DNA of 64,000 nucleotides, from the NCBI GenBank assembly GCA_025455065.1, contig JALONG010000023.1, forward strand, positions 1 through 64,000, read 5' to 3'. Within the stretch, counting starts at the first letter, position 1; each line of letters begins with the position of its first letter. Of the stretch, positions 17,463-44,047 are shown piece after piece. The DNA is from Candidatus Kapaibacterium sp. GTDB lineage: Bacteria; Bacteroidota; Ignavibacteria; Kapaibacteriales; UBA4661. Below the pieces are notes generated by a model. It made no database searches and was not told the origin of the DNA. It saw only the letters and a list, made by a program, of their open reading frames with translations. Made by a program: the position numbers and the translations under genes.

Positions 17463-17680
17463 TCTTCTCCTTTTGAGGTATGTTCGTAAGGTGATTTATA
17501 CCAATTTACGTTGAGGATTGTGCATTATTTTTTCAATGCTTTTCTCTGGAAGCAGCATAAATACTTGCACAGCAAAGAATGTCTGTGCCACTGAAGCCGG
17601 ATTTTTTTTGCACAGTTATCAACTCAAATTGGTATTATACCTTGGACTTGCATCCCTTACTAATTTCCTTTTGGAAAATT

Positions 17681-41724: not shown

Positions 41725-42496
41725 TTATGAATTTGAGGTGTAATCACGGATGAACGCTCGCGTCATAGATGCGTACATTCCCTTGGTTTGATATTCGTGG
41801 AATAAACGGTTAATTCTCTCAATCCTAGAGAGATTCTCTGGTGTTGGATTATCCAAGTATGTGTCTCGCGCCTCAAGAAGCGTTTGTATGGTTTGCAAAT
41901 GTAATATCTGGGCTTTGCGAATCTTAGCCTCTCTTTTACGCAAACCTAAAATCGAAATTGTGGCTTCACCTTTGGCGTTTCCATTGATTGCGTAGGGAGT
42001 TCTACCCCGAAAACCCAAGAAATCTTCAGGGTTATCGAAGGTAGGGTGAATCAAGAGCGGCTCTTCATCATGAACGCTGTCATGGTGAGAAAGCGCCCTT
42101 TTTGTCGGGTCAGCAAGGGGAAAAAGGTTTTTCTTGAAAGAGCGATTGCAATATTCGCACGAAAGAAAGAGATTATCCCAATCATAGGCAAGCCAGTAAT
42201 AGCCCGGATAGTGCGGAGCATCTCCTTCTTGCTGTTGCCAAAAGGCTTTGGGGCGAAAATGCTCAACGTCGCCGTTACAGCCGAGCAGGGGTGTCTCGCA
42301 AAAAGCACATTTGCCATGCTGAACAATGCTGAGAATTGCTCGAACGGTTAGACTGCCGTATATTTTTCCATCGAAAGGAAAGAATTGCTTCGCTCTTCGT
42401 TGCTGAGGTGTGGAAGAATCATATTGCTTGCAGTGTTCAAGGGCTTTTGCTGTGCCATCGGTAAGAAGAATAGCTGGTGCAGGGGGCTTAGTACAT
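41725..42496 (-). pseudogene. ptuB: HNH endonuclease of Septu/PtuB type, with frameshifted start
   Basis: A single uninterrupted frame runs from 42492 down to 41725 (minus strand) but has no ATG or GTG, and its only TTG lies too far in. At 42496 there is an ATG one base out of frame; omitting the T at 42493 yields MTKPPAPAILLTDG and a 256-residue protein. It then has the full HNH zinc-finger set: CAFCE (about residues 63-67), the catalytic VEHFRPK (about 76-82), and YWLAYDWDNLFLSC-CNR with KKNLFPL. This is the family of HNH nucleases partnered with ATPases in Septu and some retrons. Whether the shift is genuine, a sequencing error, or bypassed by a non-AUG start cannot be told here. Confidence 0.75.
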
Positions 42497-42607
42497 TGTT
42501 CTTAAAATAAACCATTATTAAAAAACAAGTATTTAAGCCACTTTGATTTTGTCATGCCGCATAAATGCTTGATTAAAAATAACTACTTTAAATTAAGAAT
42601 GACACAC

Positions 42608-44047
42608 TTAGGAATGTGTACCATTGGCAGTGCGTTTTTTCTTGGATTTTGCTGTTTGTTCAATTTTTGAGCCTGCACCATTTGCCTTGCCTTTCAGTAA
42701 CTCTGCTGCCTCCCGAATAAGAGCCATAGCTTCGCTGTCGCTTGGGTTTGACGTGATTGGGATTACTCCAATTTCTTGCTCAATCTTTTTCAGTCGCTTT
42801 TGCTCTTCTGCGCTCAGATGAGGTTTTACTTGAAGCGACTCCTGTTCACGCATAAGCTCTTCTGTTCTTGGCGAATAAAGAGCTTCTAAGCCAAAAGCAT
42901 CGCTGGCGAGAAGTAAATCCACAGTGAGATTGCGGTCAATACGCACGTTCTGGTCAATCACAACATGGTCGCCCTCGCGCCGAAGCAGGACGATATTGGC
43001 ATTCACATCCTGCGCAGCCTGCACCACAAGCGGGCTGTGGGCGGTTACGATGAACTGCGTCTTGGGAAATTGCTTCGTCAGAAAGCCGATTATTTCTCGC
43101 TGCCAGCGCGGGTGCAGGTGCAGATCCAGTTCGTCCACCAGCACAATAGCAGGTTCCTTGAGAGGCTGCGGGCTGTCGGGGTAACGTTCCACCATGCGGG
43201 CGGCGAAATCCACAATCCACGCAATCATGGTTTGATAGCCCAAGCCCAAGGATTCAAGCGGTACCCAGCCGTCGGGGGTATGGAAAGTTACTTCTACGCC
43301 GGATATTCCGCTTTCGACAATGGCAAGGCGCATGGCATTAACTTCAGGCAGTAAGCCACTTGTAAGCAAGGATTCTATTTTTTTGAAGCGCTTGGAATGA
43401 ATATTGGGTTGTGGGGACATTGAAGCCGCAAGTTTCAAGTTGCGAAGCCATTCAGCAACGTTGATTAATTCTGATTTTGAGTCAAAAAGAGATTTTGCTG
43501 AATCGTTAATTCTGTATTCTTCCCAGGGATTTGTGCCTATGTGCCGTTTGGCACCATAACCGTAAATAGCAAAACTATTCATCCATGAGGAGAATAATTC
43601 TACTTTAGGAGTTAGCGTTATTCCTAGCAGAGTGAGTCCGGGTAAAACGCTACGATGATAATTGACTTGATTTTTTACTAATTCTTTCAGGGCAGTAAAT
43701 TTTGTTTCCAAAATGCCCATTGTCCGATTTCTGTTCAGCGTTCTTCTAAATGTAAGAATATTTCTTCTAAATGTTGGCTCAAAGAAAATTTGATTATTGT
43801 CATCTCTTATGAGAAATTCCGGCTCCAACATCGCCAAAAGCTGCAACAACGTCGTTTTCCCCGTCCCATTCTCACCCAAAATCACCGTCCACCGCGCTGC
43901 ATTGCCCTTGCCGTCCGACAAATCCAGCGTTTGTTTATCGGCAAAGCAGCGAATATTTTCCAGCGTGAGCGAGTAGAAATAGGGCGCGTCGGCGGGAAGA
44001 GGGGCAGTGGGTTGAAATGCTTTGGGAGGTGTGGTTTTCTTTGCCAT
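42608..44047 (-). CDS. ptuA: AAA-family ATPase, Septu PtuA-like
   Basis: 479 residues. Residues 24-70 contain LTLENIRCFADKQTLDL and a Walker A GENGTGKTT (58-66), typical of the overcoming-lysogenisation/RecF-like AAA_21/23 class. Walker B with a helix (IVLVDELDLHLHP) lies near 302, then an H-loop (TAHSPLVV) near 335. The C-terminus is lysine-rich. It is followed on the same strand, 111 nt later, by an HNH nuclease gene. ATPase plus HNH nuclease is the Septu arrangement, an anti-phage defence in which the ATPase controls the nuclease. Retron-associated PtuA is an alternative, but no reverse transcriptase or msr/msd is visible. Confidence 0.8.
   Translation of the reverse strand: MAKKTTPPKAFQPTAPLPADAPYFYSLTLENIRCFADKQTLDLSDGKGNAARWTVILGENGTGKTTLLQLLAMLEPEFLIRDDNNQIFFEPTFRRNILTFRRTLNRNRTMGILETKFTALKELVKNQVNYHRSVLPGLTLLGITLTPKVELFSSWMNSFAIYGYGAKRHIGTNPWEEYRINDSAKSLFDSKSELINVAEWLRNLKLAASMSPQPNIHSKRFKKIESLLTSGLLPEVNAMRLAIVESGISGVEVTFHTPDGWVPLESLGLGYQTMIAWIVDFAARMVERYPDSPQPLKEPAIVLVDELDLHLHPRWQREIIGFLTKQFPKTQFIVTAHSPLVVQAAQDVNANIVLLRREGDHVVIDQNVRIDRNLTVDLLLASDAFGLEALYSPRTEELMREQESLQVKPHLSAEEQKRLKKIEQEIGVIPITSNPSDSEAMALIREAAELLKGKANGAGSKIEQTAKSKKKRTANGTHS

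What the first reader, a model, noticed from the sequence alone, without database searches (positions are those of the whole stretch)
41725..44047. Septu-like ATPase/HNH defence pair with a hidden HNH gene lacking an in-frame start
An AAA ATPase with OLD/RecF-type motifs is followed on the same strand by a complete HNH nuclease frame (41725-42492) that contains CAFCE, VEHFRPK, LSCEYCNR and KKNLFPL but no usable ATG. One base at 42493, or alternatively an extra C in the C5 run at 42482-42486, separates it from an ATG (42496 or 42515). Standard gene callers would report only a 109-residue fragment from a TTG, and the defence locus would be missed. It may be an inactivated, phase-variable or miscalled PtuB.
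Basis: partly seen in the sequence, partly recalled or inferred. Interest (0 to 1): 0.75.

Follow-up and report, generated by a model that had tools for sequence, protein, structure and literature searches.

The report
Septu nuclease gene split by MITE
A bacterial anti-phage gene pair (Septu) has lost the start of its DNA-cutting partner because a 115-base mobile repeat landed on the junction of the two genes; a sister species keeps the same pair uninterrupted, so this is an ordinary natural knock-out rather than a hidden or one-base-shifted gene.

Summary
In detail: a PtuA ATPase gene (44047-42608, minus strand) is followed by a complete PtuB/HNH reading frame (42491-41725) with no in-frame start. 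The one-base explanations do not hold. The stretch 42606-42492 is a 115-bp miniature inverted-repeat element with about 30 copies in this genome. It has terminal inverted repeats and a 5-bp target duplication, here CTAAG on both sides. It landed on the overlap of ptuA's stop codon and codons 5-6 of ptuB. A same-genus genome (G002) carries the pair uninterrupted with a single CTAAG; its PtuB begins MVHIPKPPAPAILL, and its ATG lies 17 nt before the end of ptuA. In the window that ATG survives at 42624, but translation stops after 13 codons, inside the element, while ptuA's own stop is regenerated. The C5 run and the element's terminal ATGTAC are conserved, not errors. So: a Septu system whose nuclease gene is naturally interrupted and probably inactive. 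The same genome carries five more PtuA-PtuB pairs; one is also split in ptuB, by a different element, and four look intact. It is a known kind of event; the unusual point is two separate ptuB disruptions in a Septu-rich genome.

The parts
42608..44047 (-). ptuA: 479-aa ABC/AAA ATPase (Walker A GENGTGKTT, signature LGLGYQ, Walker B IVLVDELDLHLHP), intact
   Evidence: ORF; PADLOC PDLC00304 PtuA E 9.8e-136; NCBIfam PtuA model E 5.9e-35, below its curated cut-off; PDB matches to PtuA chains such as 9vkz and 8ee4
42610..42624 (-). surviving original ptuB start, ATG GTA CAC ATT CCT (M V H I P), overlapping the 3' end of ptuA
   Evidence: identical DNA at the ptuA/ptuB overlap of the intact allele L051/G002; translation from here stops after 13 codons
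42607..42611 (-). left target-site duplication CTAAG; it contains the ptuA stop TAA (42610-42608), so that stop is regenerated
   Evidence: single CTAAG at the empty site in G002
42492..42606 (-). MITE copy, 115 bp, no ORF, terminal inverted repeats; carries stops in the ptuB frame: TAG (42585-42583) and TAA (42504-42502)
   Evidence: about 30 copies in the genome; coordinates and stops checked; hairpin fold z -3.15
42487..42491 (-). right target-site duplication CTAAG
41725..42491 (-). rest of ptuB from codon 5/6 to its stop; HNH nuclease, no internal frameshift or stop, no usable start
   Evidence: PADLOC PDLC00339 E 1.9e-77; 85% aa identity to intact PtuB of G002
41725..42054 (-). 109-residue TTG fragment; lacks the HNH motifs

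Best explanation
This is a Septu (PtuA-PtuB) anti-phage operon whose nuclease gene was split by a non-autonomous transposable element (MITE). Shown: the element's ends, its copies, the 5-bp duplication and the uninterrupted allele in a sister species. The ancestral genes overlapped by 17 nt. The element entered the sequence CTAAG, which is both the ptuA stop and codons 5-6 of ptuB. PtuA keeps its full length because the duplicated target recreates its stop. PtuB translation from its own ATG ends after 13 residues. Inferred: no functional PtuB is made, PtuA alone gives no defence, and the insertion is recent because the rest of ptuB is still open. The element was probably moved by the transposase of a resident insertion sequence with the same ends.
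For: Dispersed repeat of >30 copies exactly between the genes. 28 aligned copies share a 114-116 bp element with inverted ends; the five flanking positions agree between the two sides in 25, 26, 26, 28 and 25 of 28 copies, against 0-14 of 28 at other offsets. Empty site with a single CTAAG and an open PtuB starting MVHIPKPPAPAILL in G002. The surviving ATG and the stops inside the element are in the predicted frame. Collinearity of both flanks with G002 argues against a chimeric contig. Likely parent IS ends at contig edges in G000, with 31/35 or more identical bases to one MITE end; in G001 the IS carries a DDE_3 transposase C-terminus.
Against: No reads, RNA or protein data. ptuB shows no decay beyond the insertion and pairwise dN/dS is low (0.083/0.348), so relic status rests on the insertion alone. 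Rescue by an unusual start or by frameshifting from the element-borne ATG at 42515 cannot be excluded by sequence. The DDE_3 transposase suggests IS630 relatives, for which a 2-bp TA duplication is usual (own knowledge); a clear 5-bp duplication is atypical.
Confidence: 0.93

Rival explanations
1. A single-base sequencing or assembly error, or a homopolymer slip at 42482-42486 or 42493, hides an intact PtuB start.
For: A nearby ATG in another frame would join after a one-base change.
Against: Both ATGs belong to the MITE, whose end ATGTAC-CTAAG is conserved in other copies. The C5 run is identical in the intact G002 allele. The real start is upstream of the element.
Confidence: 0.02
2. The MITE is a reversible switch: excision by the resident transposase restores ptuB in part of the population, giving on/off control of a costly nuclease.
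For: ptuB downstream is open and constrained. Parent IS ends are present in the genome. Two of six ptuB genes are hit by mobile elements. PtuAB together, not singly, arrests E. coli growth in retron-Eco7 (PMC11555353).
Against: No excised junction was seen; no strain variants were available; cut-and-paste elements often leave footprints.
Confidence: 0.07
3. PtuB is still produced with a new N-terminus, from the MITE-borne ATG at 42515 with -1 slippage on the C5 run, or from a non-standard start.
For: The C5 run lies at the right place for a -1 shift into the PtuB frame.
Against: The C5 run is ancestral and codes for PP in the intact allele; the ATG and the run are a chance juxtaposition of element and target.
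Confidence: 0.03

Closest known systems
Septu defence system (PtuA ABC ATPase + PtuB HNH nuclease), PADLOC PtuA1/PtuB1
   Same: both proteins match PADLOC PtuA/PtuB models nearly end to end, same gene order, overlapping genes in the intact sister allele
   Different: ptuB is cut off from its start by a MITE; matches to the narrower NCBIfam retron Ec78 PtuA/PtuB models are below their cut-offs
Retron Ec78/I-A effector PtuAB
   Same: related PtuA and HNH PtuB
   Different: no reverse transcriptase recognised among the neighbouring ORFs listed (read by eye)
Bacterial MITEs (non-autonomous IS derivatives; reviewed in PMC2229807)
   Same: short, no ORF, terminal inverted repeats, target duplication, many copies, ends shared with a full IS
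   Different: this family seems confined to one genus (3 of 61 genomes); 5-bp CTWAR-type duplication although the likely parent transposase is DDE_3/IS630-like

Membership tests
Septu | PtuA-type ABC ATPase | tested here: met
   PDLC00304 E 9.8e-136 over residues 16-453
Septu | adjacent PtuB-type HNH nuclease sequence | tested here: met
   PDLC00339 E 1.9e-77; HNH motifs retained
Septu | ptuB is a translatable gene with its own start | tested here: not met
   start separated from the body by the MITE with two in-frame stops; so this is a broken copy of a Septu system, not a working member
Septu | phage defence activity | not testable with these tools
   needs experiment
MITE | many dispersed copies without ORF | tested here: met
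   about 30 copies, nearly all 114 bp
MITE | terminal inverted repeats | tested here: met
   pattern TWAGTACRTNRTTCTTRADWTAA found 34 forward/32 reverse with 0 in the reversed-pattern control
MITE | target-site duplication | tested here: met
   5 bp, 21 of 28 copies identical on both sides; CTAAG in the window
MITE | ends shared with an autonomous element | tested here: inconclusive
   IS ends at contig edges share the TIR and one 35-bp end; no complete IS copy assembled; the similarity of the other end is limited to the TIR region
Retron I-A | reverse transcriptase and msr-msd RNA beside PtuAB | tested here: inconclusive
   no RT recognised by eye among ORFs at 39-47 kb; no dedicated search run

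The most novel reading that the evidence does not exclude
Loss of PtuB is selected in this lineage. In a genome with six Septu pairs, two ptuB genes, both next to PtuA of the same PADLOC subfamily (PDLC00304), are separately split by two different mobile elements while their PtuA genes stay intact. The ATPase may be kept for another role, or partner the PtuB of other pairs, or the insertion may act as a reversible off-switch.
Probability: 0.12. Interest if true: 0.55.

Novelty: new member of a known kind. Interest (0 to 1): 0.3.

Why it matters
It turns a puzzling 'hidden gene without a start' into a clean, explained event and gives a natural ptuB knock-out beside an intact sister allele. It also warns that defence annotation by gene callers can miss systems broken by small MITEs. 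Two independent ptuB disruptions in one Septu-rich genome raise a testable question about the cost of the nuclease.

Tried and rejected
One-base frameshift and C-run slippage: rejected by the MITE copies and the empty site. Chimeric contig at a repeat: rejected because both flanks are collinear with G002. MITE that specifically targets stop codons: 7 of 29 copies have the ORF stop in the duplication, against 5 of 88 random CTWAR sites in the window; but among CTWAR sites outside coding sequence it is 5 of 18, so removal of harmful insertions is enough. Search for a complete parent IS in 119 genomes of the order found only edge fragments in the genus. phmmer of PtuB against the PDB gave no match. 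Literature searches for Septu or other defence genes broken by insertion elements returned nothing relevant.

Full report
What is in the sequence. Profile scans place them as PtuA (PDLC00304, E 9.8e-136) and PtuB (PDLC00339, E 1.9e-77, protein residues 5-254 on profile positions 6-256 of 261). NCBIfam's narrower retron Ec78 models match both, below their cut-offs, and the PDB holds PtuA relatives. The profile match shows that only about five residues are missing at the N-terminus.

What separates the frame from its start. A search of the window's own genome (G000, 131 contigs, 5.6 Mb) with the locus showed that the stretch between the two genes, about 42611-42487, is repeated, with more than 30 copies at 78-98% identity. 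Aligned copies define an element of 114 bp (115 in the window) with inverted ends, between 5-bp direct repeats of the type CTWAR. In 28 copies the five duplicated positions agree between left and right in 25, 26, 26, 28 and 25 cases; positions further out fall to 0-14. A TIR pattern gives 34 forward and 32 reverse matches in the genome and none for the reversed pattern. In the window the duplication is CTAAG at 42607-42611 and 42487-42491, and the element is 42492-42606.

The empty site. Among eight genomes of the genus, one (G002, whose matching contig is the 4,246-base 'Ignavibacteria bacterium' record) has an 85% identical PtuB. There the DNA reads ...GCCAATGGTACACATTCCTAAGCCCCCTGCACC... 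with one CTAAG and no element, and PtuB runs from MVHIPKPPAPAILLTDG, its ATG 17 nt before the end of ptuA. The window has the same letters up to CTAAG, then the element, then CTAAG and the same letters onward. Its surviving ATG (42624) reads MVHIPKCVILNLK and stops. Because the target contains ptuA's TAA, PtuA is unchanged. The two one-base hypotheses fall: the ATGs at 42496 and 42515 belong to the element, and the C5 run is the same in the intact allele.

Where the element comes from. TIR-bearing contig edges in G000 (C70, C68, C55) and in other genomes of the genus carry the ends of a full insertion sequence. One IS end aligns without gaps to the first 35 bases of the MITE consensus, with 3 or so mismatches. 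The corresponding protein end in G001 matches DDE_3 (PF13358, E 1.7e-14), which suggests an IS630-like parent. The link is likely but not complete: no whole copy is assembled and the second end is similar only in and near the TIR. In 61 related genomes the MITE itself was found in three, all of the same genus.

State of the gene. PtuB shows no other damage. Pairwise dN/dS against G002 is 0.083/0.348, against about 0.08/0.51-0.55 for the conserved parts of PtuA. The insertion therefore looks young, or the gene is still sometimes needed; sequence alone does not decide.

How it most likely works. Septu needs both the ATPase and the HNH activity: mutation of either motif abolishes defence in the E. 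coli system of PMC13096335, and PtuA or PtuB alone does not arrest growth in retron-Eco7 (PMC11555353). By inference, the window's pair is silent while the element is in place.

Context. The same genome holds five more PtuA-PtuB pairs. Four look intact: C54, C44, C70 and C111. The fifth, on C32, has an intact PtuA but its PtuB ends after 149 aa at a different element's end (ACCAATTTGAGTTGA); the rest lies at the start of C29, with matching 5-bp flanks ATAAT on both contigs. That C32 and C29 are neighbours is inferred from these flanks and from profile positions 1-145 and 130-245. Both broken pairs have PtuA of the PDLC00304 subfamily. Two of six is suggestive of a cost of PtuB, but n is two and the remark is post hoc.

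Verdict. A real Septu pair, naturally knocked out in ptuB by a MITE. It is ordinary in kind and well resolved here; the double disruption deserves a follow-up.

Noticed in passing
G000:C32:88-528 and C29:49-402 (L128, L129): A second ptuB in the same genome is split by another insertion element (inverted end ACCAATTTGAGTTGA, flanks ATAAT on both sides), with its ptuA intact.
   Followed up: yes
L131, L132, L133, L134 (C54, C44, C70, C111): Four further, apparently intact PtuA-PtuB pairs: six Septu-type pairs in one genome.
   Followed up: partly
window 17498-17638: Copy of a second dispersed repeat (about 140 bp, roughly 40 copies at 87-94%) with inverted ends ATACCAATTT.../...AAATTGGTAT, which it shares with the insertion element that splits the C32 ptuB; another MITE family.
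   Followed up: partly
window about 43820-43240 (PtuA residues about 76-270): The PtuA middle region is only about 40% identical to the G002 PtuA, with dN 0.60 and saturated dS, while the flanking parts are about 96% identical with dS about 0.5: a sharply bounded mosaic, as if a sensing domain had been exchanged.
   Followed up: partly
MITE copies L077, L078, L080, L089, L090, L092 and the window copy: 7 of 29 MITE copies sit exactly on an ORF's stop codon, which the duplicated target regenerates; explained by a TAA-containing target plus selection against coding hits.
   Followed up: yes
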